50,903 nt of DNA, taken from Acetobacter lovaniensis (GTDB lineage Bacteria; Pseudomonadota; Alphaproteobacteria; Acetobacterales; Acetobacteraceae). Of the stretch, positions 2,125-16,505 are shown piece after piece. The stretch lies in assembly GCF_014207635.1 (NCBI RefSeq), contig NZ_JACHIE010000019.1, positions 1-50,903 on the forward strand, given 5' to 3'. The notes below the pieces were generated by a model. The model had not been told where the DNA came from. It did not search any database and was given only the letters and a program-made list of their open reading frames with translations. How positions within the stretch are numbered: position 1 is the first letter of the stretch; each line of letters begins with the position of its first letter. Made by a program: the position numbers and the translations under genes.

Positions 2125-2464
2125 GCCCGTCTGTCTTTGCCGGGGTCACGGGTAACTCATTGACCCCGGTATTCAGGTAGTTGCGTGTTACCAAGCCATG
2201 ATGACTTCGACACAAGCTACGGACATTCTCAAGGTCATATTTACGATCAGGCGCCTTATCCAATGGCACGATATGATCGACATGAATGTGCAGGGAGTTG
2301 TAATTTCCCTCATCCCAACACATCACGCAGAACGGGTTTCTCTTCCGATAATTCTCTGAAAACTCACGCCATGTACTATCATACTTTTCTGTTCGCATGT
2401 TCCTATGAGTGCGGTTGTAATGATAGTTCCTCTGTGTCGATGAACACCTGATTTTCTCAGCCAT
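2111..2464 (-). CDS. HNH endonuclease, HK97 gp74-like
   Basis: A 117-aa product. After YDSTWREFSENYRKRNPFC comes the zinc pair C-x2-C (FCVMCW, about residues 46-49), the core HVDHIVPLDK (about 61-70), the spacer with DLENVRSLC and the second zinc pair CRSHH. Similar phage HNH proteins aid DNA packaging at cos sites next to the terminase, but no terminase is in the window, so a homing or other role is possible. It is the last gene of the minus-strand tail block and overlaps the upstream gpN-like gene by 8 bases, which suggests translational coupling. Confidence 0.8.
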   Translation of the reverse strand: MAEKIRCSSTQRNYHYNRTHRNMRTEKYDSTWREFSENYRKRNPFCVMCWDEGNYNSLHIHVDHIVPLDKAPDRKYDLENVRSLCRSHHGLVTRNYLNTGVNELPVTPAKTDGPIEL

Positions 2465-2996
2465 TGTTAATCACCTCAAGTGTCGTGTTGACGAACAGGG
2501 GGTGAATGATCTTGCTATTATTGCGTAGCAATATGTCATCGGCCATCGACCCATCTTGATAGATATACTGCGCCAGCACAGGTAAGGGTATCTTGTCCGT
2601 GGGATCGACATAAAACTCCACAACCTGTGGTAACACTGACCCGCGAGTGCTGATATCCGCGATAGTCTTGGTATAGAGGCGCTTTAAGCGATTAAATGCC
2701 TGAGAGTCCAAATTGCTATCACCCATTTGAGCCTCAAAGAGTGGCTTCAATGACGTGAGTATATTCTCGGCTTGTGACGAGGAATCAAACTCAATCTGAC
2801 TGACCGCTGCGCCTATATAACTGAGGATCACGATCCTTAGGCTTGTCGCCGTGGTCTCATTCATTGTCGGTACTAATGTTCTACTCGTTGGATCATACCC
2901 AACTTTTTCCATCATGCCGATAAAAACTGACAGACGTTGAACCGGGTCTGGGTATAAGTCTGTGATGTTGTCCATAATATCAATGATGCTTTGCAT
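2457..2996 (-). CDS. DNA circularisation (Mu gpN-like) protein, C-terminal part
   Basis: A 179-aa product. Its last 60 residues match what I know of the C-terminal end of DNA circularisation/gpN proteins: a VLPQVVEFYV segment, IPLPVLAQYIYQDGSMADDI, then LRNNSKIIHPLFV and LEVI, corresponding to the family's LPALVLAYRLYGDxxRADELvaRNxIRHPGFVP. The N-terminal half of the same family is a separate gene at 5001-5744. Together they give 426 aa, close to a usual single-chain gpN. The start codon shares one base with the tape-measure stop (TAATG), so the gene is coupled to it. Confidence 0.7.
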   Translation of the reverse strand: MQSIIDIMDNITDLYPDPVQRLSVFIGMMEKVGYDPTSRTLVPTMNETTATSLRIVILSYIGAAVSQIEFDSSSQAENILTSLKPLFEAQMGDSNLDSQAFNRLKRLYTKTIADISTRGSVLPQVVEFYVDPTDKIPLPVLAQYIYQDGSMADDILLRNNSKIIHPLFVNTTLEVINNG

Positions 2997-4999
2997 TATC
3001 GGCCTCCGATACGTGGCTGTGATGTTGTCCTTGTTTTAACGTCTCCAATTTTCGGATTTACCGGCAATGTGTGAGAGCCCATTGTCGCACTGGTAACTTT
3101 GCCCTCATGATTGACATTGAGGTTAATCGTCATGTCACCCGAGACATTGGCATTTGCTGTAGTTTGCTGGGCCTGACCCTTAGGTGTGCCGCCACTGTAT
3201 TGCTGGTATTGTGAGAGAGTGGACCGTGCGTTGTTGAGGCGAGTGGCGTACTCCCTGCCCCTGACCCCGTTATCAAGGTATTCCTTGGGACGTTCGCCAT
3301 CGAGAAAGCCCTTATTGGCATCTTCTAGTGTTGAAGCCCCGTAGAACTCGCCACCGGCCTTCTTCTCGCTGGTTTTCATTTCCCATAGGTTCGCGTCTAG
3401 CTGTTCCTGCCATGACATTTGGTCAAGACGCTTGCCGAACTGCTTCTGTATGGCTTTTTCGCGCGGTCGCTGCTCTTGCAAGATACCAACAGCATGGCCG
3501 TTGTCACCGATGGCCTTCTCATTGAAGCCTGATTCCTGTTGGACATTACCAACAATCGTGGCGGCCTGCTCTGGCTTGAGACCTCTCTGTTTGACCAGAA
3601 AGTCCATCATTTCCATTTTGCGCTGTTGCTGCTCTAGGGGGGAGTATCTACCCGAGGAATGATACCTACGATCCATAGACATCTGCTTTTGTCGATTAGC
3701 CACGATACCAGCGTCAGAGCCATCGTATTTGAGTTCCTTGTAGAGACTATAGCCCGCATACCCAGCCACACCCGCAGCAGCACCTAAAGCGAGAACAGGC
3801 GCGACAGCTCCACCACCGATTGCCGCCCCACCGAGCTTGGCAGCTTGAGCAGCGACAACCGCTGTTCTCATGCCCGTAAACGCCTTGGTGATCATCGCAA
3901 TATCTGCGACCACACCAACCGCCCATGACGTGAAGCTAATAGCCTTGATTGCGAGAAAGATACCTACGAGGCCCGTGGCACCACCTAGAAGATTGTAGAG
4001 CTTCTTGGCCTCGCCAAAGAACGACCTTACGCCATCGCTAACCGCTTTCCAGTCGATGTTCTTGATTGCTTGGGCGACATCATCTGCGACACCTTTGATG
4101 TCGGCCATAATGCTATCGACGTTCTTACCGTCATTTGACCAGTTGATGAATGAGTCCAAAAGGGAATTGACTGCGGGTGCGAGAGCAGCTTCCAACTTGG
4201 TAGTCAGCACACCTGCTCGACCACCTGCCATCTTGAACTTATCGGATAGGTCTTCAGCTTGCTTGACGAACGGAGCCATATCGCGGGCATTGTCCTGCGA
4301 AGCCTTTTGCAGACGTTTGAAGCGGGCTAAATCCTGATCCATAAGCGCAGGATCAAGGCCAGCGGCACTCAAGAGGTTACGACCACCAGCTTGATTTACG
4401 GTGCCGTTTTTAAGGAGTTGCTGAACACGAGCAATGGCTTTGACTTGGGCATCTTCGAATTTCATATTGGGATTAATGCCCAACATATTGTCCGCGAACT
4501 GCGCTTGTGCGTTCATGCCCGAACCAGCTTGTGCTTGTGTATCTTGGTAATTCTTGAGACCGCCAATCTGATCCAAGCCTGTGAGCTTGGACATCTGGTT
4601 TAACTGGACAATCTTGTCACCTGCGACACCCAAGAGCGCAGACGCATTGCGTATTTCCTGACCCCAATTTGCAAAGTTCTGTGTGAGCTTAACAACACCC
4701 ATCACCGAACCCACACCAATGACACCAGCGAGCGCCTTGGTCATACCCATAAGCGGTGAAGTGACCTGACTGATATGACCCTTGAGCGATGTGAAGCCCT
4801 TCTTCATATCGTCTAGGTGCTTCTTGCGGGCTTTCATCGATGCGTCATAGCCAGACAGCTTATTGTATTGGGCTAGTTCCTTCTGATACGCCCGCATGGG
4901 TGCTTGTGCGGCCCTGAACTCCTTATTGAGTGTTTTGAGCTTTGCTGTGGCGGCATCAACCAACTCCACTCTGGTCGTAAATGTCCCATTTGCTGCCAT
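2996..4999 (-). CDS. Tail tape-measure protein with tail-lysozyme domain
   Basis: A 667-aa product. The first 80 residues are charged and coiled-coil-like, followed by hydrophobic patches (about 85-105, 335-375 and 390-420) typical of tape-measure proteins. From about 460 to 600 there is a Phage_lysozyme2-type domain: FLVKQRGLKPEQAATIVGN, then QQESGF with the likely catalytic Glu (about 488), then GHAVGILQ. This domain lets the tail cross peptidoglycan during infection. The tail end is polar and disordered. It starts one base after the gpN N-terminal gene (TAA-C-ATG, with AGGAG ahead) and ends by overlapping the gpN C-terminal gene. Confidence 0.8.
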   Translation of the reverse strand: MAANGTFTTRVELVDAATAKLKTLNKEFRAAQAPMRAYQKELAQYNKLSGYDASMKARKKHLDDMKKGFTSLKGHISQVTSPLMGMTKALAGVIGVGSVMGVVKLTQNFANWGQEIRNASALLGVAGDKIVQLNQMSKLTGLDQIGGLKNYQDTQAQAGSGMNAQAQFADNMLGINPNMKFEDAQVKAIARVQQLLKNGTVNQAGGRNLLSAAGLDPALMDQDLARFKRLQKASQDNARDMAPFVKQAEDLSDKFKMAGGRAGVLTTKLEAALAPAVNSLLDSFINWSNDGKNVDSIMADIKGVADDVAQAIKNIDWKAVSDGVRSFFGEAKKLYNLLGGATGLVGIFLAIKAISFTSWAVGVVADIAMITKAFTGMRTAVVAAQAAKLGGAAIGGGAVAPVLALGAAAGVAGYAGYSLYKELKYDGSDAGIVANRQKQMSMDRRYHSSGRYSPLEQQQRKMEMMDFLVKQRGLKPEQAATIVGNVQQESGFNEKAIGDNGHAVGILQEQRPREKAIQKQFGKRLDQMSWQEQLDANLWEMKTSEKKAGGEFYGASTLEDANKGFLDGERPKEYLDNGVRGREYATRLNNARSTLSQYQQYSGGTPKGQAQQTTANANVSGDMTINLNVNHEGKVTSATMGSHTLPVNPKIGDVKTRTTSQPRIGGR

Positions 5000-5000
5000 G

Positions 5001-5744
5001 TTATGCTCCTAACTCAGCATTCGCGGCAGCGAGTGACGTGCTTAAACTCTGCTTTGCGGTATTGGTTGTTGTGATCGTAAGGGACTGAGCACTGCTGAAT
5101 TTCTGCGCGTCAGTGGAACCTGTGACCTTGCTTGTAACGGTACTGGTCGTGGAAAATGGGTTCTGAGCATATCGACCAAGCGTTGAATGGCTCATCACTG
5201 AGTCGATACCGGATATTGCGGTCGTCGTAACCGCAGTGGTCGCCATACCAACAGCCCCATTCAAGAGACTGTTCGCGGTATCACCGAGACCAAAATCAAG
5301 GTCATCAAGACCGCCCATTGCCTCACTGAGCAGATCACCAGCGGTATCAAGTAGGCCAAGGGGCGTTATGGGAACTTGCGGCAATACAGTCGCGGCGACA
5401 AATTCCATTTCAACTTGTATGATGCCCTTCTCATTCATCTTCTCAGAAAATTCAGAAAAAATACACGCCGCTCGATACATACCGCGACTTGGATGAAGTA
5501 ATTCCCCAATGCCTTTGACACGTAGAGCCGCTTCAAGAAGGTCTCGGCTCATATAGAGGTTTGAGTCATTGCTTATAAAAGCAGAGAAGCGAAACCTAAG
5601 TGTATTGGCCCCAAGGTCTTCTAGGTACGGGTTTGTCTGATTGGGAAACTCATGCACGATGATAGATCGGTTCATGCCGCTATCTGAAAAATCCCGAATA
5701 TAAAATGGCACTCCACGAAAACTACCCACTGGACTGACTGTCAT
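5001..5744 (-). CDS. DNA circularisation (Mu gpN-like) protein, N-terminal part
   Basis: A 247-aa product. Residues 8-90 match the DNA_circ_N family: SFRGVPFYI, then SIIVHEFPNQTNPYLEDLG, then LRFRFSAFI and GELLHPSRG. In Mu, gpN is a baseplate/tail protein. Full-length family members run to 400-500 aa, whereas this one changes to a low-complexity Ser/Thr/Ala tail after about 150 and stops at 247. The missing C-terminal domain is encoded downstream at 2457-2996, beyond the tape-measure gene. It is the first gene of the minus-strand tail block. Confidence 0.8.
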   Translation of the reverse strand: MTVSPVGSFRGVPFYIRDFSDSGMNRSIIVHEFPNQTNPYLEDLGANTLRFRFSAFISNDSNLYMSRDLLEAALRVKGIGELLHPSRGMYRAACIFSEFSEKMNEKGIIQVEMEFVAATVLPQVPITPLGLLDTAGDLLSEAMGGLDDLDFGLGDTANSLLNGAVGMATTAVTTTAISGIDSVMSHSTLGRYAQNPFSTTSTVTSKVTGSTDAQKFSSAQSLTITTTNTAKQSLSTSLAAANAELGA

Positions 5745-5753
5745 AAGTAATAC

Positions 5754-5789
5754 CTCAATAAAATATACGATCGTCGAATATTTATTGAG
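5754..5789. promoter_or_regulatory. Palindrome between divergent prophage operons
   Basis: CTCAATAAA (5754-5762) and TTTATTGAG (5781-5789) are exact inverted copies with an 18-base AT-rich centre holding CGATCG. They lie in the 150-base gap between the minus-strand tail block and the plus-strand HNH operon, where both promoters must be. A regulator-binding site is a reasonable inference; no matching regulator gene is visible. Confidence 0.4.
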
Positions 5790-5895
5790 ATGAAAATAAC
5801 AATTTCAGAGCTAAGAACGGTGTTTTGGCGTCTCCCGCATAAATAGAAATGAAGAAAGCGTTGTATTGCTTTCCGCATTTCAAAGGAGAATTAAA

Positions 5896-6330
5896 ATGCC
5901 AAAGAAAAAAATAACAGCCAAAGATTCATTGAAGGCTAAAACAGAAATTAATACCAACACACCCATTATCAATGGGCATCACTGCTTGGATTATCTCGGT
6001 GGATATTCTGATGTCGGATATGGCTGGGTTCGTGACAATTCAACTCAGAAACTGGCACATCGTGCGTCATACGAAATCCATCATGGCCCTATACCAAAAG
6101 ATATGCTGGTGCTTCATGCGTGTGACAGACGTTCGTGTGTTGAGCCACGCCATTTGAGAGTGGGCACACAAAAAGATAATGCAGCAGACAGAAAAGCCAG
6201 ACCCAAGGCTCCGCTCTCACCCAGTGATAAGACCGCAATCATAAACGACACTGACGATTTCAACGCCATAGGACGAAAATATAATATCAGTCGCAATACG
6301 GTAAAACAAATTAAAGGGTTAATTCCATGA
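5896..6330 (+). CDS. HNH homing-type endonuclease with C-terminal HTH
   Basis: A 144-aa product starting MPKKKITAKD; this ATG is chosen over one 30 bases earlier because AAGGAG (5883-5888) is well placed for it. The core is of the HNH_3 type: AHRASYEIHHGPIPKDMLVL, then HACDRRSCVEPRHLRVG with paired cysteines and His, then TQKDNAADRKA. The last 35 residues (FNAIGRKYNISRNTVKQI) look like a helix-turn-helix, common as a DNA-recognition tail in phage homing nucleases. Its stop overlaps the next start (ATGA), so it heads a three-gene operon. Confidence 0.8.
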   Translation: MPKKKITAKDSLKAKTEINTNTPIINGHHCLDYLGGYSDVGYGWVRDNSTQKLAHRASYEIHHGPIPKDMLVLHACDRRSCVEPRHLRVGTQKDNAADRKARPKAPLSPSDKTAIINDTDDFNAIGRKYNISRNTVKQIKGLIP

Positions 6331-6518
6331 ATAACTCAGATATATTGGGTCTGTATTTTCAAGGCCGTTTAACAAAAAACACATTGATAAACATCATAAA
6401 TTTGAAGTCCGTTTTGTCGAGCATTGATAACGGAAACATACCTAGCGATGAATATATGAAGGCATTGATGTCCTCATTGTTCCCAGAACCACAAGATCAG
6501 GAGCAAGGAAATGGATAA
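6327..6518 (+). CDS. Small hypothetical prophage protein, 63 aa
   Basis: Starts MNNSDILGLYFQGRLTKN. It overlaps the HNH gene upstream (ATGA) and the 98-aa gene downstream by 8 bases, which is the main evidence that it is translated. It is probably helical and soluble, with no known motif. Confidence 0.5.
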   Translation: MNNSDILGLYFQGRLTKNTLINIINLKSVLSSIDNGNIPSDEYMKALMSSLFPEPQDQEQGNG

Positions 6519-6807
6519 GCTCAAAGAAGGAACACAACTACTCGAAAACACAGCAAAGGACTTCACGGAGTTCTGCCTAAAGACAACCGAAGAACTGAAG
6601 ACGCCATACGAATTGCTCTGTGAGAAGATAGACGCAGTTATCGAAGAGCATAATGAGCTTATTGAGGATATGGGAGTTATGACAGCAGAAGATAAGATTG
6701 AGGTTGAGCAATCTTTGAAGAGATACGACACACTCTGCGACATAAAAGAAAGGTATGAAGAAGATAATAGTGTTGATATTTTGATGGAATTTCTCACAAT
6801 ATATTAA
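6511..6807 (+). CDS. Hypothetical acidic coiled-coil prophage protein, 98 aa
   Basis: Starts MDKLKEGTQLLENTAKDF, preceded by AGGA inside the upstream gene. It is strongly acidic and almost fully helical with heptad-like spacing, so a coiled coil is likely. It has no signal peptide or cysteine cluster. It is the third gene of the HNH operon. The function is unknown; size and position would suit a tail-assembly, inhibitor or regulatory protein equally well. Confidence 0.55.
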   Translation: MDKLKEGTQLLENTAKDFTEFCLKTTEELKTPYELLCEKIDAVIEEHNELIEDMGVMTAEDKIEVEQSLKRYDTLCDIKERYEEDNSVDILMEFLTIY

Positions 6808-6890
6808 CAAATAATTATTAAGACTATATTTTTCATGACGCGATTAGAAAACGACACTAAAAAGCCAGTATGTTTATTTCAGGAGTTAAA

Positions 6891-7259
6891 ATGTTTAAGA
6901 ATATGCTGGCCGCAGTTGGCCTAATTTTACCCATATCAGTTCATGCACAGACTTCGACTGTGATCTTTGACCATCACACTTATCATTTCAAAATGACACG
7001 CGGCAACATATGGGAAAGCCCTTTAACGCCGGGTATTTTGGACTGGAATTTCTCATCAGGTGATCATACGTTTGTCGTTCATATGGCCGGGAGATCAGCT
7101 TTTTACGGAGGCGTTCGTGACAGCCAGATACCCGGTATGGGAACTAATGCTCCGGCGAGTAATCTCCGCTGCTCATATGATCCCTATAACTCTTTCATTG
7201 GTTGCAAGGGCACCTTAGATGGGCATGGGACTTTTGATGTGATGGTGAGCGGGCAATGA
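6891..7259 (+). CDS. Exported hypothetical prophage protein, 122 aa
   Basis: The start at 6891 is chosen because AGGAG (6881-6885) precedes it and the protein then begins with a good signal peptide, MFKNMLAAVGLILPISVHA, with cleavage after AHA-like VHA. The mature part is about 100 aa, mostly beta-like, with two cysteines (CSYDPYNSFIGC) that could form a disulfide. The function is unknown. It overlaps the next exported gene by 4 bases (ATGA). A secreted pair inside a prophage suggests lysogenic conversion or superinfection exclusion, which is inference only. Confidence 0.6.
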   Translation: MFKNMLAAVGLILPISVHAQTSTVIFDHHTYHFKMTRGNIWESPLTPGILDWNFSSGDHTFVVHMAGRSAFYGGVRDSQIPGMGTNAPASNLRCSYDPYNSFIGCKGTLDGHGTFDVMVSGQ

Positions 7260-7711
7260 TAAAAATAGCTCTAGCTGCTCTTGTGGCGATCATGCCCATT
7301 ACAGCCTACGCGGAGACAATGAGTAATCATAAAGGTCATTGTCTCCCCGCAAGCCATATCGGATTGGCAGATGTTAAATCCTCTCTCAGCATTTCGCTTA
7401 ATGACTGGGATCATTCCGATAAAAATAATCACCCCATTGAATGTGATACGTCTGTATTGCTGACCAATGACAAGATGGTTTCAACAATGGCATTTGGTGA
7501 TGAAAAAAATGTAGCAATCACATTCCATATGACATTCAAAAATGACCACTTTGATATTGATGGTGTGTGGATTGGCAATAAGTTGGAATACAAAAAAGCT
7601 CTTGGTCAATGTTACAAAAAGGATGAAAAAACATTCGTTTGTGGTGCCGTAAGTGATACCGTTGTAAATGGGAAAGTTAATATCTACGAAGTTGTGTATC
7701 TACTCGATTAA
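7256..7711 (+). CDS. Exported hypothetical prophage protein, 151 aa
   Basis: Begins with a signal peptide (MIKIALAALVAIMPITAYA), followed by about 130 mature residues with four cysteines (about positions 29, 63, 119 and 129), enough for two disulfides. It is translationally coupled to the upstream exported gene through ATGA. A strong terminator follows, so the two genes probably form their own transcription unit. No family is recognised. Confidence 0.6.
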   Translation: MIKIALAALVAIMPITAYAETMSNHKGHCLPASHIGLADVKSSLSISLNDWDHSDKNNHPIECDTSVLLTNDKMVSTMAFGDEKNVAITFHMTFKNDHFDIDGVWIGNKLEYKKALGQCYKKDEKTFVCGAVSDTVVNGKVNIYEVVYLLD

Positions 7712-7718
7712 ATAAAAA

Positions 7719-7744
7719 CCCCAGACTCATACTCTGGGGTTTCT
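7719..7744 (+). terminator. Rho-independent terminator after the exported pair
   Basis: CCCCAGA (7719-7725) pairs with TCTGGGG (7733-7739) around a 7-base loop, followed by TTTCTT. It sits just after the stop at 7711. Confidence 0.85.
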
Positions 7745-7786
7745 TGTGAGCAAATAAATACATGATAACAACATCTGGAGGTTATC

Positions 7787-7921
7787 ATGCTCACAATTCT
7801 TACGACTTTTGGAATTACCGAAGTCCTGAACATTGCTGCAATCGTAGCTGTTATTTTTTATCGCAAGAAAATTAAAGCAACGGCTGAAACAGTTATCAGC
7901 GATGTAACAACTGGCGCTTAA
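7787..7921 (+). CDS. 44-aa single-span membrane protein, possible holin
   Basis: ATG 7787 with GGAGG 6 bases upstream opens a 44-aa frame, MLTILTTFGITEVLNIAAIV and on, with one membrane segment (about 8-24) followed by a short basic cytoplasmic tail (YRKKIKATAE). It lies 2 bases before the Rz-type gene. Position and topology fit a small holin or holin-like lysis protein, but holins are too variable to be sure, and one span is few. Confidence 0.5.
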   Translation: MLTILTTFGITEVLNIAAIVAVIFYRKKIKATAETVISDVTTGA

Positions 7922-7923
7922 CA

Positions 7924-8328
7924 ATGGCAGCAATCCTATTACCCATACTGGAAAAGTTTGGAAAATGGGTTGTTGTCATTGGTGTGATTGTCGGCCTCTT
8001 TTTATGGGGCCGACACTACCAGCTTGATAGCAGACTAAAAGAAACCCAACTGGCCCAATCCCAACAGACTATCACACGGATGAAGTCTGATTACGCGAAA
8101 TATCAAGAGCAACAAACAGCACTCTTGAAGCAGGAGCAATCACGTCAAGCCAAAACCATCATGATCATCAAGAGTATCGCCAATGCAAAAGAAACAAATT
8201 CATGCGCTTCTAGTCCTGCCATTAGGAATGTTCTTAACGGGTTGCGCGACCACAATTCCACAGCAAGCCCCACTGACAATTCCCTCAAACATGCTTCTCT
8301 GTCAGGCAGCTCCACAAGTACCAGATGA
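7924..8328 (+). CDS. Rz: Rz-like inner-membrane spanin
   Basis: A 134-aa product with an N-terminal membrane anchor (WVVVIGVIVGLFLWG, about 15-29) and a long periplasmic coiled coil rich in Gln, Lys and Glu (about 35-85). It ends with CASSPAIRNVLNGLR, like the Cys-x-x-PxxxxxxLR segment near the end of Rz proteins. Rz and Rz1 fuse the inner and outer membranes at lysis. The partner Rz1 starts inside this gene in the +1 frame, the classic nested arrangement, which is strong support for the assignment. Confidence 0.85.
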   Translation: MAAILLPILEKFGKWVVVIGVIVGLFLWGRHYQLDSRLKETQLAQSQQTITRMKSDYAKYQEQQTALLKQEQSRQAKTIMIIKSIANAKETNSCASSPAIRNVLNGLRDHNSTASPTDNSLKHASLSGSSTSTR

Positions 8329-8446
8329 TCCCACGGATAAAGACCTGGCCTATTACATTCTCGATTTAAGTAATGCCGGTGATGACTGCCGGGACAAGCT
8401 AAAAGCCATTAAAAACATTGAGGAACCAACAAATGGAAAGAAATGA
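8183..8446 (+). CDS. Rz1: Rz1-like outer-membrane spanin lipoprotein
   Basis: An 87-aa product starting inside Rz in a different frame. The signal peptide ends in the lipobox LTGC (lipid-bearing Cys about 21), followed by a Pro-rich stretch (TIPQQAPLTIP) as in Rz1 proteins. The C-terminal part DLAYYILDLSNAGDDCRDKL is of the type seen in larger Rz1 relatives. Its end overlaps the start of the following gene. It acts with Rz in the last step of lysis. Confidence 0.85.
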   Translation: MQKKQIHALLVLPLGMFLTGCATTIPQQAPLTIPSNMLLCQAAPQVPDDPTDKDLAYYILDLSNAGDDCRDKLKAIKNIEEPTNGKK

Positions 8447-8801
8447 CCTCGCAACAGAGATAGGTAAGCTCGTATTAGAGCAACTCGATAACGAGCATCA
8501 CGCCAATAGCCTGAACAATGACATTCTCCGTGACCACTATGAAGCATGTCACTCCGAGACATCCCTGAATATCGTCAGTGATCCGTGGCGATACCTTGCT
8601 GAAAAGCACAACGATTTAGTTGATGAGATGAGGGTACATAGCAGCAAAGCCACTTTGAAAAATGAGGTTATTGAAGAGAAGCTGGCAGACCTGAAAGCCG
8701 CCTATGAAGAGCATATTTTAACTGGTGATGATCTCTTCATGCTGGTCATCAAGCATAAATCGCCATGTGAAAATCGAAGAGGTGTTAGATGGCCGATATA
8801 A
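8433..8801 (+). CDS. Hypothetical prophage protein, 122 aa
   Basis: Starts MERNDLATEIGKLVLEQL; this ATG is chosen because GAGGA (8420-8424) precedes it. It overlaps Rz1 by 14 bases and the gp46-like gene by 13 bases, so it is probably co-translated. It is acidic, mostly helical and soluble, with several histidines early on and two cysteines. No family is recognised. It is not an endolysin by any motif I can see. Confidence 0.55.
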   Translation: MERNDLATEIGKLVLEQLDNEHHANSLNNDILRDHYEACHSETSLNIVSDPWRYLAEKHNDLVDEMRVHSSKATLKNEVIEEKLADLKAAYEEHILTGDDLFMLVIKHKSPCENRRGVRWPI

Positions 8802-9253
8802 GAATGACCTACGACAATCAACAGCAGAGGGCTGATATCGACCTTGAAAGCCTCTTGGGAACGAACATCACTGTTGATGTCCAGACAGGTTACGACCTCT
8901 CAACTGCCTGCATGATATCCCTGATGACTGATCGAGTAGCTGACTCAGACTGGACACTGAGCATTGACCAGAGGGGCTGGTGGGCTGATGCCTATAGAGA
9001 GCAACCAATCGGTTCTCGTATCTGGCAACTTGAACTGCTCTCGGTCAGCGATCCCTCAGAATACCTTATCAGAACAAAAGCCTATTGCGAAGAAGCCCTA
9101 CAATGGCTTGTCGATGATGGTATCGCTCAGTCGGTATCTGCAAGTGCCTATTTCACGGATACCACGAAGAGAAACATTGGCGCGGACATCACTGTCACGA
9201 AGTCCAATGGCCTAACTGAGCAGTTCTCTTATGTATGGGATCAGAGCTTATAA
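8789..9253 (+). CDS. Mu gp46-like baseplate protein
   Basis: A 154-aa product matching the GP46 family along its length: ISLMTDRVADSDW near residues 43-55 (family: vSLftDrRA), the RGWWADAY block (about 62-69), IGSRIWQLE (about 74-82), YCEEALQWLVDDGIAQSV (about 98-115), and a final TEQFSYVWD strand. gp46 is a wedge-type component of Mu-like contractile-tail baseplates. In Mu it lies next to gp45 and gp47. Here it sits after lysis genes, on the opposite strand from the gpN/tape-measure block, so the tail module is rearranged. Confidence 0.8.
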   Translation: MADIRMTYDNQQQRADIDLESLLGTNITVDVQTGYDLSTACMISLMTDRVADSDWTLSIDQRGWWADAYREQPIGSRIWQLELLSVSDPSEYLIRTKAYCEEALQWLVDDGIAQSVSASAYFTDTTKRNIGADITVTKSNGLTEQFSYVWDQSL

Positions 9254-13141: not shown

Positions 13142-13170
13142 TTGACAGCCCTTTGCTGCTTGGGTAAGAG
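13142..13170 (+). promoter_or_regulatory. Probable promoter of the prophage tRNA-Thr gene
   Basis: TTGACA (13142-13147) is a perfect -35 box; 17 bases later is a weak -10 box, TAAGAG (13165-13170), and the tRNA begins 10 bases after that. The tRNA therefore seems to have its own promoter and to be independent of phage lytic transcription. Confidence 0.55.
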
Positions 13171-13180
13171 CGCAGGCAAT

Positions 13181-13477
13181 GCTGGTTTAGCTCAGTTGGT
13201 AGAGCAACCGCCTTGAATTACGAGTGCCTAAGGGGAAACCCTTGGAGTAGAACGAGCCAAATTCGGTGAAGGCTTAGGGAGTAATCCCATGCTAATACCG
13301 AGCGAAGCCTAGGAAACTAGGAACGTGTAGAGACTAGACGGTTCGCACCTAACGGCTTCGGCTTATGGTGAAGGTATAGTCCAGACCACGAACGGGCAAC
13401 CCACGTTGCCCGGCGGCGAAAGTCGAAGTGGGAAGGTAAGCGGTAGGTCGTGAGTTCGAGTCCCACAACCAGCACCA
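13181..13477 (+). tRNA. tRNA-Thr(UGU) interrupted by a group I intron
   Basis: Exon 1 is 13181-13214, exon 2 is 13436-13477; joined they give a 76-base tRNA with encoded CCA. Acceptor GCTGGTT pairs with AACCAGC, D-stem GCTC/GAGC, anticodon stem ACCGC/GCGGT, loop CTTGTAA with anticodon TGT (34-36). The T-stem GTGAG/CCCAC has one A52-C62 mismatch. The intron lies between U34 and G35. The anticodon arm is identical, as far as it can be compared, to the broken host tRNA-Thr at 14951-14987, while the acceptor stem differs, so this is a separate phage-borne gene rather than the displaced host half. It probably supplies the UGU acceptor the host lost. Confidence 0.92.
13215..13435 (+). ncRNA. Group I intron, IC3-like, in tRNA-Thr anticodon loop
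   Basis: A 221-base intron without an open frame. It shares long blocks with the Azoarcus tRNA-Ile intron as I remember it: GTGTAGAGACTAGACGG (13325-13341) and GGTATAGTCC (13373-13382), which pair GACTA/TAGTC as P7, and CCAAATTCGG for the P4-P6 region. P1 is short: exon C32-U33-U34 against GAG (13222-13224), with U34-G as the splice-site wobble. P2 is CTAAGGG-GAAA-CCCTTGG (13228-13245). A P9-type hairpin is CGGGCAAC/GTTGCCCG (13393-13412). The last base is G, as required. It should self-splice. Confidence 0.92.
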
Positions 13478-13483
13478 TGTGAC

Positions 13484-13502
13484 CCCGGCCTTTATGGCCG
13501 GG
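13484..13502. terminator. Hairpin between tRNA and integrase gene
   Basis: CCCGGCC (13484-13490) pairs with GGCCGGG (13496-13502) around TTTAT. There is no T-run on either side, so termination may be weak. It lies between the convergent tRNA and integrase genes. Confidence 0.5.
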
Positions 13503-13510
13503 CTACACAC

Positions 13511-14824
13511 TCAATCATCATTACTAATTCTAACTGCCAGTTCGGAAGCGTACATCTTCCATTCAGGTTGTAGCTGTTCTGCGAGTTGTTCTGACGTGGC
13601 ATCCACGTAAAATTCTTGGAGCATTTTGGGGCTCGTGCCCATATTATGAGCCAAAGCGTAAAATGGTACCTTGGCTATAATCATCTGTGTGGCGAAGAAG
13701 TGCCGTAGAGAATAAGCGGAACGCTTTGCCCCTGTGTAGTCATATAAAAGACCTGCCTCTTCCAATAAGGCATCGAGTCCATTTCGGAATGATCTTTGAA
13801 CATTCCCTCTGCTGTTTATGAATGGCGACTCGGTAGGTAAGGGGTTTCTGCCAAGCTCTTCTCTGCACAAATCCCATAAGTGTTGGATTGACCAATAGAC
13901 CTCTGGCATCGGTACGATGGTTCTGTTTTTGTCCTTGCCGTGGACTTGTAAGCGAATCCGTTTCCCGCAAGCCAAACGGGCATCGTCACTGCTACTGTCG
14001 ATATTGGGTTTAAAATGAAGAATGTCTTTCCACAGAAGGTTTGCTGCTTCTGGTGGTCTCATGCCTGTGAAAGCCATTAACTCCACATAGGCACGTAGTC
14101 TTAGTCGATCTCTTCTGACGCGTGGGTGTAAGAACTCGTCGCCTAATGCTCTTCGAGTCGCTACGATATTAAGCCTTCCATATTCCTCCCATGTAAAACT
14201 CGGTCTGGGATTGGGCTTAATGGGTTGAGAGTTAACCTCAATGACCTCGCTTATAAAGCCTTCACGACGAAGCCATGTGAAGAAGGAACGTAAGGCCATG
14301 GCTTCATCAGCCTTAGTTGATCCACTCGGCGGTTTACGTGACCTTTGACTGACGGGTCTTGTTATCGTTTTACCATCACGAACATAAGGGATCGTCTGAA
14401 TGTCTCGACCCGGCCCCTCAGTCCAATAGACATTGCGCCAGTCCCAATATCTATCGACTTTGGTACTTGTTATATGTGTGACGCTTTCTTTCTCAAAAAA
14501 CTCACGAATATATCGGTTCGTGATGCCGTAGAGGTTCTTAAACTTCTTCTCGGATATTATGCCGTTTTCCATCTGCTTGCGTTGATAGCGAAGGTATGAA
14601 TCCAAGCATTCATTGAAGGACTTAGGCTTTGCCTTGATACCAAGTTTATCATTGTGGACAGCTTGCGCGTAGAATTCGAAGGCTAGTTTTGCGGCTTCTC
14701 GCTCATCTCTCGTGCCTAGCGATTTGATGATCTGGCCCTGGCCCCTTATTGAGAACCTTACCCAATAAGTTGTGCCTCTTTTGAAGAGGCGATAAGGCGT
14801 TACGCTATCGTAATACACCGCCAT
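13511..14824 (-). CDS. int: Tyrosine recombinase (prophage integrase)
   Basis: A 437-aa product. Residues 60-200 form the core-binding/SAM-like domain and about 210-420 the catalytic domain. Visible catalytic residues: R256 (TGMRPPEA), K297 (HGKDKN), R374 in YSLRHFFAT, H393 (LAHNMG) and the nucleophile Y406 (QEFYVD). The usual His of the H-x-x-R box is Tyr371 here, a tolerated substitution in some family members. It is next to the attachment site at 14951 and reads away from it. It integrates and excises the prophage at tRNA-Thr(UGU); the excision factor is not seen in the window. Confidence 0.92.
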   Translation of the reverse strand: MAVYYDSVTPYRLFKRGTTYWVRFSIRGQGQIIKSLGTRDEREAAKLAFEFYAQAVHNDKLGIKAKPKSFNECLDSYLRYQRKQMENGIISEKKFKNLYGITNRYIREFFEKESVTHITSTKVDRYWDWRNVYWTEGPGRDIQTIPYVRDGKTITRPVSQRSRKPPSGSTKADEAMALRSFFTWLRREGFISEVIEVNSQPIKPNPRPSFTWEEYGRLNIVATRRALGDEFLHPRVRRDRLRLRAYVELMAFTGMRPPEAANLLWKDILHFKPNIDSSSDDARLACGKRIRLQVHGKDKNRTIVPMPEVYWSIQHLWDLCREELGRNPLPTESPFINSRGNVQRSFRNGLDALLEEAGLLYDYTGAKRSAYSLRHFFATQMIIAKVPFYALAHNMGTSPKMLQEFYVDATSEQLAEQLQPEWKMYASELAVRISNDD

Positions 14825-14843
14825 GCTGTTGCTACCCCGTGCT

Positions 14844-14862
14844 GTATTAGCTTTGTATTAGC
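14844..14862. promoter_or_regulatory. Direct repeats upstream of int, candidate arm sites
   Basis: GTATTAGC occurs at 14844-14851 and 14855-14862, exactly 11 bases (one helical turn) apart. TGCTGT occurs three times close by (14824-14829, 14840-14845, 14867-14872). Between an integrase and its attachment site, such repeats are often arm-type sites for integrase or excisionase. They could also bind an int repressor. The rest of 14825-14950 shows nothing else. Confidence 0.4.
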
Positions 14863-14950
14863 GTAATGCTGTGTTCCGGGGAGGGCAACGTCTAATAATT
14901 TTCAGCAATAACAATGACTTATATCCAAAGTGGCACCGTAATTGTATAAG

Positions 14951-14957
14951 TTACAAG
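14951..14957 (-). other. Prophage attachment-site core (anticodon loop)
   Basis: On the minus strand the tRNA sequence is normal through loop CTTGTAA (14957 to 14951) and then changes abruptly to CTTATACAATTACGG, which cannot continue the anticodon stem. The 7-base loop is thus the likely strand-exchange region, as for other integrases that use anticodon arms. TTGTATAAGTTACAA (14942-14956) is an inverted repeat across the junction. The other attachment site lies left of the window. Confidence 0.75.
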
Positions 14958-14987
14958 GCGGTTGCTCTACCACTGAGCTATAAGGGC
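14951..14987 (-). pseudogene. 5' half of host tRNA-Thr(UGU), cut by the prophage
   Basis: Reading 14987 to 14951: acceptor GCCCTTA, T8 A9, D-arm GCTC-AGTGGTA-GAGC, A26, stem ACCGC and loop CTTGTAA with anticodon TGT. The 3' half (GCGGT stem, T-arm and a TAAGGGC acceptor strand) is missing here and would be expected at the far left end of the prophage. The remaining piece cannot fold as a tRNA. The intact phage copy 1.5 kb away has the same anticodon. Confidence 0.88.
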
Positions 14988-15128: not shown

Positions 15129-16505
15129 ATGCCGCACGTTTCCCCAAGCCCCGCTCCCGCCCTGTTTCTGCACGATAGCCAGCGCCGCGCGACCGTGCCG
15201 TTCCAGCCGCTCGATCCCGCGCATATCAAGGTCTATTACTGTGGCCCCACGGTGTATGATCTGGCCCATATTGGCAACCTGCGCGCCATGCTTACGGCGG
15301 ATGTGCTGGTCAGGCTGCTGCGCACGCTCTACCCCCGTGTTACATTCGTGCGCAATATTACCGATGTGGATGACAAGATTACCGCCCGCGCCCGCGCCAA
15401 TGGGGAAGATATTGGCGCGCTTACCCAGCGTACCACGGCGGAGTTTCATCAGGATCTGGCATCCCTTGGCGTGCTGCCCCCCGACATAGAACCCCGCGCG
15501 ACCCATAATATTGGCGAGATGCAGGCCATGATCGCCCGGCTGATTGAAAACGGGCACGCATACGCGGCACAGGGGCATGTGCTGTTTTCGGTCGGGTCGT
15601 TCCCTTCCTACGGCGCACTTTCCGGCCGTAACCCGGATGAGCTGGAAGCGGGTGCACGTGTGGAAGTGGCACCCTACAAAAAAGCACCGGGTGACTTTGT
15701 GCTGTGGAAACCATCAGATGCAGACCAGCCGGGGTGGGATAGCCCGTGGGGCAGGGGGCGTCCGGGGTGGCATATTGAATGCTCGGCCATGTCGCACCGT
15801 TATCTGGGCGATAGTTTTGATATTCATGGTGGTGGGTCGGACCTGCTTTTCCCGCATCATGAGAACGAACGCGCGCAAAGCCTGTGCTGCTTCCCGCATA
15901 GCCAGTTTGCCAATTACTGGGTGCATAACGCCATGCTTCTGGTGGACGGTGAGAAAATGTCCAAGTCACTGGGCAATTTCCTGACCATCCGCGATGTGCT
16001 GGCGCAGGCTCCGGCGGAGGCATTGCGCCTGCTGCTGCTGGGCACGCATTACCGCTCCACCCTGAATTACACGCAGGCCGGGCTGAATGAGGCCCGCAAG
16101 ACGCTGGACCGGTTCTACCGTGCCCTCTCCAGCGTGCCGGATGTGCCCGCAACCCCTGTGCCGCAAACCGTACTGGCCGCATTGGCGGAAGACCTGAATA
16201 CCCCCAGGGCCATTGCCGAACTGCATGTGCTGGCTAATCAGGCCATGGGCGGGGACCGCGAGGCCGCAGGCGCGCTCAAAGCCGGTGGGGCGTTAATGGG
16301 TCTGTTGCAGGGGGACCCGGCGCAGTGGTTCCGCGGAGAGTCTTCCGCCGAGGAAGATGCCGCGATTGAAAACCTGATAACGGAGCGGCTGGCCGCCAAA
16401 AAAGCGCGGGATTTTACAAGGGCCGATGCCCTGCGCGACCAGTTGCAGGCACAGGGTATTGTGCTCGAAGATACAAAAGACGGCACGAACTGGAGGCGCG
16501 CATGA
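15129..16505 (+). CDS. cysS: Cysteinyl-tRNA synthetase
   Basis: A 458-aa product, the usual length. It attaches cysteine to tRNA-Cys in the cytoplasm. Class I signatures: YYCGPTVYDLAHIGN (zinc ligand C38, HIGH-type motif 47-50) and KMSKSLGN near residue 275; zinc-site pattern WHIECSAMS and HGGGSDLLFPHHENE in the middle. The C-terminal anticodon-binding helices end in a TKDGTNWRRA tail. The stop overlaps the start of the methyltransferase gene (ATGA), so the two form an operon. The start could be a few codons further on, because the first 15 residues are not conserved-looking. Confidence 0.97.
   Translation: MPHVSPSPAPALFLHDSQRRATVPFQPLDPAHIKVYYCGPTVYDLAHIGNLRAMLTADVLVRLLRTLYPRVTFVRNITDVDDKITARARANGEDIGALTQRTTAEFHQDLASLGVLPPDIEPRATHNIGEMQAMIARLIENGHAYAAQGHVLFSVGSFPSYGALSGRNPDELEAGARVEVAPYKKAPGDFVLWKPSDADQPGWDSPWGRGRPGWHIECSAMSHRYLGDSFDIHGGGSDLLFPHHENERAQSLCCFPHSQFANYWVHNAMLLVDGEKMSKSLGNFLTIRDVLAQAPAEALRLLLLGTHYRSTLNYTQAGLNEARKTLDRFYRALSSVPDVPATPVPQTVLAALAEDLNTPRAIAELHVLANQAMGGDREAAGALKAGGALMGLLQGDPAQWFRGESSAEEDAAIENLITERLAAKKARDFTRADALRDQLQAQGIVLEDTKDGTNWRRA

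What the first reader, a model, noticed from the sequence alone, without database searches (positions are those of the whole stretch)
13181..14987. Prophage replaces the tRNA it destroys with an intron-armoured copy
Seen: the host tRNA-Thr(UGU) gene is cut at the 3' edge of its 7-base anticodon loop, and the prophage carries a whole tRNA-Thr(UGU) whose anticodon arm is the same but is split inside that loop, between U34 and G35, by a group I intron. Inference: the phage copy keeps the cell alive by reading ACA/ACG, and the intron hides the integrase crossover sequence at DNA level while restoring it at RNA level. That would be an immunity-to-self-integration device built from a ribozyme. I do not know a description of this exact arrangement.
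Basis: partly seen in the sequence, partly recalled or inferred. Interest (0 to 1): 0.93.

Follow-up and report, generated by a model that had tools for sequence, protein, structure and literature searches.

The report
Phage tRNA shielded by self-splicing intron
A virus lodged in an acetic-acid bacterium has cut one of its host's tRNA genes in two and carries its own whole copy of that tRNA interrupted by a predicted self-splicing intron, which would likely replace the lost tRNA while keeping the virus's own DNA-joining enzyme from cutting it; related viruses of other bacteria carry the same arrangement for two other tRNAs.

Summary
The window's prophage splits the host tRNA-Thr(UGU) gene at its 7-nt anticodon loop. 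I found the missing 3' half on another contig, empty sites in relatives, and no other tRNA-Thr(UGU) among 44 Rfam tRNA hits. The prophage carries a whole tRNA-Thr(UGU) whose joined exons share a 32-nt run with the host attB, but in DNA a 221-nt group I intron splits it inside the crossover core.

Half of the idea is known: "tRNA-dependent lysogeny" (Guerrero-Bustamante & Hatfull 2024). I found no report of the intron.

The pattern recurs. In 10 prophages of this integrase family the host tRNA is cut and not properly rebuilt (one, G068, less clear); all 10 carry an isoacceptor tRNA: 7 with an intron in the anticodon loop (Thr-UGU, Lys-UUU, Leu-UAA), 3 intronless with a rewritten anticodon stem. 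None of these 10 genes contains an uninterrupted attB.

Best reading: intron or rewritten stem likely keeps the replacement tRNA from being an attB for the phage's own integrase. Splicing, tRNA function and blocked recombination are untested. Intron-bearing tRNAs also occur in viral loci without a sign of this integrase, so they were probably recruited, not invented here.

The parts
13181..13214 (+). 5' exon of phage tRNA-Thr(UGU), ends ...CCGCCTT (U34)
13215..13435 (+). group I intron, 221 nt, between U34 and G35
   Evidence: RF00028 45.6 bits E 9.4e-10, below the 50-bit cut-off; pair counts; fold z -4.04 for the whole gene
13436..13477 (+). 3' exon of phage tRNA-Thr(UGU), GTAAGCGG...ACCA
13142..13170 (+). 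promoter-like TTGACA-17-TAAGAG, 10 nt before the tRNA
   Evidence: read by eye; not reported by the scan, whose second-hexamer rule it misses
13511..14824 (-). tyrosine integrase gene, convergent with the tRNA
   Evidence: PF00589 E 4.6e-9; phrog_1 integrase E 3.9e-35
14951..14957 (-). attachment core CTTGTAA = whole anticodon loop
   Evidence: shared with far end on C11 and in A. lambici
14951..14987 (-). 5' half of host tRNA-Thr(UGU)
14900..14950 (-). phage side of the junction (attP arm); does not rebuild the tRNA
15129..16505 (+). host cysS beside the broken tRNA gene
   Evidence: PF01406 E 1.8e-119
2996..5744 (-). prophage tail genes (tape measure, DNA_circ_N/baseplate hub)

Best explanation
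The prophage has cut the host tRNA-Thr(UGU) gene inside its anticodon loop without rebuilding it and carries a whole tRNA-Thr(UGU) gene split at that same loop by a predicted group I intron, so the intron likely masks an otherwise exact copy of the host target site from the phage's own integrase, while splicing would restore a tRNA that likely replaces the host's. Shown by sequence: cut host gene, both halves, 7-bp core, phage gene, intron position, no other UGU gene found, and the same arrangement beside related integrases for tRNA-Lys(UUU) and tRNA-Leu(UAA). Inferred: that the phage tRNA is expressed, spliced and charged and reads ACA; that the integrase would recombine attP with an uninterrupted copy (here inverting the int segment and breaking the only tRNA); that this cost is why intron-bearing or stem-rewritten copies are the ones kept. 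The intron-bearing tRNA was probably acquired ready-made.
For: Junctions and missing half; empty sites with intact tRNA: 5' flank matched in 28 of 28 relatives fetched, both flanks in 24 of 28, nearest 98.3%/97.3%. Census: G000 44 RF00005 hits, Thr only GGU and CGU; G383 47 hits, 46 read by ARAGORN, its only UGU is the phage's; G381 45 hits, no Lys(UUU) among them. Joined phage exons vs rebuilt host gene: 32-nt run (Thr), 75 of 76 identical with 58-nt run (Lys, G381), 29-nt run (Leu, G544). Against the 17-nt attB: joined exons 0 mismatches in G000, G006, G381, G544 and 1 in G068; DNA 6, 6, 3, 5 and 6. Prophages of the family with a cut host tRNA: 10 of 10 carry the isoacceptor, 7 with intron. 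The intron label needs at least 4 changes on starred branches of the integrase tree. Gluconobacter copies: 6 of 10 stem columns differ vs 8 of 59 elsewhere, Fisher p 0.003. Intron keeps P1 and P7 and shows covariation.
Against: No RNA, charging or recombination data. At the G381 Lys exon-intron junction the DNA has only 3 mismatches to the 17-nt attB, so masking there is modest. In G825 and G810 the stem also differs (2 of 13 in the readable half), so the intron need not be the only barrier. 45 of 77 viral loci with the intron motif have it inside an ARAGORN tRNA call, and 1 of those 77 loci shows this integrase family (loci partial, profile narrow), so tRNA introns spread without it. Three Gluconobacter prophages need no intron. 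In G068 the near junction is a hybrid that still reaches Rfam's tRNA cut-off (36.1 vs 29 bits), though ARAGORN does not call it. Draft genomes: G000's census lacks Ile(GAU) and Ala(UGC), probably collapsed rRNA operons. No census for G006, G474, G478, G544, G825, G810, G068; far ends of G825 and G810 not found, those of G474 and G478 not sought.
Confidence: 0.62

Rival explanations
1. Ordinary tRNA-dependent lysogeny with a passenger intron: the phage tRNA replaces the host tRNA, but the intron is a neutral or selfish element that came with a captured tRNA gene.
For: Introns occur in many viral tRNA genes (45 of 77 pattern loci); a viral tRNA-Thr(UGU) with the same intron position is 76% identical to ours (L238); the G381 Lys copy resembles intron-bearing Lys genes seen in at least 6 of 49 Acetobacter genomes, upstream flank included by eye. 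Group I introns and this integrase family may favour the same anticodon loops (inference), and intron-bearing tRNA-Leu(UAA) genes are common elsewhere (recalled).
Against: In G000 only one host tRNA gene (Arg-CCU) matches RF00028 besides the phage's, against 44 Rfam tRNA hits, yet 7 of 10 replacement copies have an intron, over three isotypes and at least 4 label changes; the broken host copies are intronless at the junction; the copies without intron have a rewritten stem.
Confidence: 0.28
2. The intron serves regulation: splicing timing gates when the tRNA becomes available, or shields the precursor from anticodon nucleases.
For: Position in the anticodon loop; Lys(UUU) is an anticodon-nuclease target (PrrC, mentioned in PMC10865867 section 11).
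Against: No regulatory element seen; the Thr and Leu isotypes and the Gluconobacter intronless copies are not explained.
Confidence: 0.06
3. The phage tRNA is dead and the cell survives otherwise (unassembled tRNA gene or wobble by another tRNA-Thr).
For: Draft assembly of 57 contigs; rRNA-operon tRNAs are missing from the census.
Against: The host gene is broken at its usual locus; intron pairing is kept with covariation; the G383 and G381 censuses agree; GGU and CGU are not expected to read ACA (recalled decoding rules), which occurs in cysS (3 codons).
Confidence: 0.04

Closest known systems
tRNA-dependent lysogeny (Guerrero-Bustamante & Hatfull 2024, PMC10865867; abstract, sections 6 and 11 and 12 passages read)
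   Same: Tyrosine integrase, attB in a host tRNA gene, short core, host tRNA not rebuilt, phage tRNA of the same isotype
   Different: There: actinobacteriophages; the four I fetched have intronless tRNAs. Here: Alphaproteobacteria, group I intron in the replacement tRNA at the crossover. What I read there does not discuss introns or self-integration ('intron' occurs once in that text, place not seen; 'self' and 'intramolecular' 0 times)
Replacement tRNAs of Sinorhizobium meliloti prophages (PMC11476347; passages read)
   Same: Alphaproteobacterial prophage tRNA replaces the inactivated host isoacceptor
   Different: 'Intron' does not occur in the text; replacements described as resembling tRNAs of unrelated Alphaproteobacteria. 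A later paper of the group (PMC12429752, passages) reports that its phiLM21-like prophages rebuild the host tRNA instead
Archaeal tRNA introns as protection against integration (Randau & Soll 2008, seen only through passages of PMC4390854 and PMC4090602)
   Same: Intron interrupts attB in a tRNA gene and is removed at RNA level
   Different: Host defence with protein-spliced introns; here the phage shields its own copy from its own integrase, with a ribozyme
Bacterial group I introns in tRNA anticodon loops (review PMC3984707, passages read; Arg-CCU cases seen)
   Same: Same intron class and insertion region
   Different: The 2014 review states that phage introns seen to date were all in protein genes; here the intron is in a phage tRNA gene

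Membership tests
tRNA-dependent lysogeny | Tyrosine integrase with attB in a host tRNA gene | tested here: met
   PF00589 and phrog_1; junctions in tRNA-Thr(UGU)
tRNA-dependent lysogeny | Short common core; host tRNA not rebuilt | tested here: met
   7-bp core CTTGTAA; phage side does not continue the tRNA, no tRNA called at the junction
tRNA-dependent lysogeny | Phage encodes tRNA of the same isotype | tested here: met
   ARAGORN on joined exons: Thr(UGU)
tRNA-dependent lysogeny | Phage tRNA required for viable lysogens | not testable with these tools
   needs genetics; the census finds no other UGU gene
group I intron | Matches the Rfam family | tested here: inconclusive
   window copy 45.6 bits, below the 50-bit cut-off; close relative L087 50.7, above it
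group I intron | Conserved P1-P9 pairing with covariation | tested here: met
   95.2% of cells paired, 20 of 50 pairs changed on both sides; structure drawn by hand from the window sequence
group I intron | Self-splices | not testable with these tools
   no RNA data

The most novel reading that the evidence does not exclude
Phages that kill a host tRNA gene on integration repeatedly recruit ribozyme introns as removable masks: the same essential sequence is hidden from the phage's recombinase in DNA and restored in RNA. More generally, every replacement tRNA must be a non-attB, reached either by splitting it or by rewriting its stem.
Probability: 0.55. Interest if true: 0.92.

Novelty: new variant of a known kind. 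Interest (0 to 1): 0.83.

Why it matters
It would give a self-splicing intron a concrete selected function: separating DNA-level from RNA-level identity of the same sequence. It adds cases of tRNA-dependent lysogeny in several families of Alphaproteobacteria, explains why a replacement tRNA cannot simply be a host copy, and makes the untested idea that tRNA introns block integration directly testable with one integrase and three plasmids.

Tried and rejected
Rejected: chance match of the arms (the joined-exon run of 32 nt, and 58 nt in Lys, is too long); hidden intact host copy (censuses of G000, G383, G381 only); attP rebuilding the tRNA (no tRNA called by ARAGORN at the junctions of G000, G006, G381, G383, G474, G478, G544, G825, G810, G068; but G068's hybrid reaches Rfam's cut-off). 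Intron built in place by the phage: unlikely, given the related intron-bearing tRNAs in other viruses and bacteria.

Led nowhere: tblastn of the integrase in INPHARED gave no match at E 1e-5; three IMG/VR scans gave one and the same relative contig; far ends of G825 and G810 not found; Omega was not found under the accession I recalled. Host attB of the actinophages was not read directly: I compared phage tRNAs with attP cores that I located upstream of int. In the four phages compared the stem differs: Fionnbharth attP CTTTTAATCA vs tRNA CTTTTAACCG; LeBron CTTTTAATCC vs CTTTTAAGCG; Mollymur CTCATAATCC vs CTCATAATGA; Gaia tRNA CTCAAAATCC vs the host 3' half as carried in Courthouse attP, TTCAAAACCC.

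Full report
1. Observation. The window is a whole contig (G000:C19) of a draft genome of 3.46 Mb in 57 contigs. A congeneric genome, G006, with the same prophage is Acetobacter lambici LMG 27439 (contig number and length 50024 agree). The host side starts at about 14951, with cysS at 15129. Reading the minus strand, the host tRNA-Thr(UGU) runs from 14987 to the end of its loop at 14951 and then turns into phage DNA. The phage tRNA lies at 13181-13477 on the plus strand, convergent with the integrase gene (13511-14824).

2. The other end. A pattern for the 3' half of the relatives' tRNA hit once in G000, on contig C11, and once in G006. In both, phage DNA precedes CTTGTAA and the host 3' half follows it. 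The two G000 junctions share exactly CTTGTAA, the seven-nucleotide anticodon loop. Joining the halves gives a 75-nt tRNA-Thr(UGU) by ARAGORN. Of 48 congeneric genomes, 30 matched the anticodon-arm pattern and 18 did not and were not followed. Of the 30 loci printed, 28 are read by ARAGORN as whole tRNA-Thr(UGU); the 2 others are G000 and G006. The G000 5' flank matches those 28 of 28 and the 3' flank 24 of 28; the nearest, G021, at 98.3% and 97.3%.

3. Is it the only copy? RF00005 gave 44 hits in G000. ARAGORN on all of them reads Thr(GGU) and Thr(CGU) but no Thr(UGU). The census is not perfect: Ile(GAU) and Ala(UGC) are missing, probably rRNA-operon copies lost in assembly, and intron-bearing genes escape RF00005. 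RF00028 (E up to 1) gave 2 matches, the phage's and a host tRNA-Arg(CCU). cysS beside the site uses 3 ACA codons.

4. The intron. Rfam scores it 45.6 bits (E 9.4e-10), under the curated 50; of the two close copies given, L087 scores 50.7 and L083 is not listed. On nine tRNA+intron genes a hand-drawn P1-P9 model pairs 95.2% of cells, with 20 of 50 pairs changed on both sides (0 of 500 shuffles as high; for further pair types 16 of 500), and pairing falls below 45% when slid by one column. One helix (7 in that table) pairs at only 70%. The model was drawn from our sequence, which favours it on cells paired.

5. Comparison with the attachment site. The joined exons share a 32-nt run with the rebuilt host gene. 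Against a 17-nt attB (core plus five bases each side) the joined exons have 0 mismatches and the gene's DNA 6; anywhere in the window the best is 4, one of the two being the left junction itself. In the free phage the tRNA and attP would be in opposite orientation, so recombination would invert the int segment and break the tRNA (inference from positions).

6. Relatives with the same target. The integrase of G383 is identical (435 of 435) to a database protein named Gluconobacter cerevisiae. Among 26 genomes of its genus the site is intact in 23 and cut after TTTGTAA in 3: G383, G478, G474. All 3 carry a whole intronless tRNA-Thr(UGU) directly after int. Its loop matches the host, but 6 of 10 stem columns differ, against 8 of 59 outside (Fisher p 0.003). 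The gene is the same in G383 and G474 (0 differences), so this is one sequence, not three. G383's 47 tRNA hits (46 read by ARAGORN) include no other UGU, and its far end is on the same contig.

7. Other isotypes. In G381 (another genus of the family) the host tRNA-Lys(UUU) is cut after CTTTTAA beside an integrase of 34-37% identity; the far end lies 39.0 kb away, and just inside it sits a tRNA-Lys(UUU) with a 208-nt intron (RF00028 29.5 bits, E 1.7e-5, below cut-off). ARAGORN first misread it; the joined exons are read as Lys(UUU) and are 75 of 76 identical to the rebuilt host gene. Among 45 tRNA hits of G381 there is no Lys(UUU). The region between holds a terminase among ORFs that look phage-like by eye. 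In a class-wide search, 20 of 385 genomes had the integrase (27 places). In G068, G544, G825 and G810 the host tRNA-Leu(UAA) is cut at CTTAAAA and a tRNA-Leu(UAA) with a group I intron lies downstream of int. Introns of G068, G544 and G810 pass Rfam's cut-off (56.0, 52.2, 50.7 bits); G825's is not listed. For G810 ARAGORN says Phe(AAA); with the splice point I chose, the joined exons read Leu(UAA), and its host half was recognised at 4 of 20 mismatches. The far half was found for G544 and G068, not for G825 or G810. In G068 the near junction carries a decayed tRNA 3' half; this hybrid reaches 36.1 bits against a cut-off of 29 but its acceptor and anticodon stems do not pair properly by eye and ARAGORN does not call it. 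I read it as a rebuilding attP left to decay; it is the least clear of the ten.

8. Tally. The family search gave 33 places; I fetched contexts for 20 of the 32 outside the window: 2 cut, 11 with an intact tRNA near int, 7 without a recognised tRNA. From 26 class loci outside the window (L364-L389; wider context for 16): 4 cut, 13 with an intact tRNA in the locus, 9 unclassified. With the window, G006, G474 and G478 that makes 10 cut cases; 10 of 10 carry the isoacceptor, 7 with intron, 3 with rewritten stem. L087 is an eighth intron case whose host site I did not see. The intron group is not one clade: its label needs at least 4 changes, gains or losses, on well-supported branches (5 by parsimony; 36 of 500 shuffled labellings as low) in a tree of 26 integrases. 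Left out of the tree: G478, 8 of the 24 intact-tRNA loci and the 16 unclassified ones; deep forks are weak and three rows have long branches.

9. Against. Viral contigs hold many tRNA genes with such introns (45 of 77 pattern loci), and of those 77 loci only the L087 contig shows this integrase family (the loci are partial and the profile is narrow). One of them, L238, has a tRNA-Thr(UGU) with the intron at the same place, 76% identical. At least 6 of 49 Acetobacter genomes (12 of the matched loci were read) have an intron-bearing tRNA that I read as Lys(UUU); the three whose ORFs I looked at lie among genes that look like host genes by eye, and the upstream flank resembles that of the G381 phage copy. 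So the intron probably came with recruited genes. At the Lys junction the DNA still matches 14 of 17 attB positions. G825 and G810 have both an intron and stem differences.

10. Known work. tRNA-dependent lysogeny explains the replacement (PMC10865867: abstract, sections 6 and 11, passages). S. meliloti prophages show it in Alphaproteobacteria (PMC11476347: passages; PMC12429752, passages, refers to that but finds rebuilding in its own prophages). The masking idea was proposed for archaeal hosts (PMC4390854, PMC4090602: passages citing Randau & Soll, not read). A 2014 review says phage introns were all in protein genes (PMC3984707: passages). I found no report of an intron in a replacement tRNA in searches, over open-licence PMC papers only, mostly from listings. 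In four actinophages that PMC10865867 describes (Fionnbharth, LeBron, Gaia, Mollymur) the phage tRNA stem differs from the attP core or carried host half, which fits the same rule; their host attB was not read directly.

11. Verdict. The anatomy is solid and recurrent; replacement of the host tRNA is very likely; masking of attB by the intron is the best single explanation of why 7 of 10 replacement copies carry one, but it needs a recombination assay.

Noticed in passing
L219-L224 (G030, G002, G032, G011, G042, G045): Acetobacter tRNA genes that I read as Lys(UUU), in what looks like a host setting (ORFs of three checked), carry a group I intron in the anticodon loop; ARAGORN calls them tRNA-SeC. 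They would be masked from integrases that target tRNA-Lys(UUU).
   Followed up: partly
L229-L305 (IMG/VR): 45 of 77 viral loci found by an intron motif carry it inside an ARAGORN tRNA call, of many isotypes, contrary to the 2014 statement that phage group I introns lie only in protein genes. Four are Arg(CCU) and may be host genes at provirus edges.
   Followed up: partly
L390 about 9045-9127 (G068): The near junction holds a hybrid tRNA-like gene: host Leu(UAA) 5' half plus a decayed 3' half, a possible intermediate between rebuilding and replacing.
   Followed up: partly
L080 1424-1733 (G000:C23): Host tRNA-Arg(CCU) with a group I intron, the other RF00028 match in the genome.
   Followed up: no
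L402 5685-5761 and 7327-7403 (G068): tRNA-Met(CAU) on both sides of a second integrase; the downstream copy has a different anticodon stem although the upstream copy is intact.
   Followed up: no
L393 1763-1847 (G559): Intronless tRNA-Leu(UAG) directly after an integrase of this family; no cut host half found.
   Followed up: partly
L215 (G474) vs window 2324-9238: Ten blastn pieces of 74-83% identity join this prophage to the window phage, but the integrase is 48% identical and the replacement tRNA is of the other type: the int-tRNA module has been swapped.
   Followed up: no
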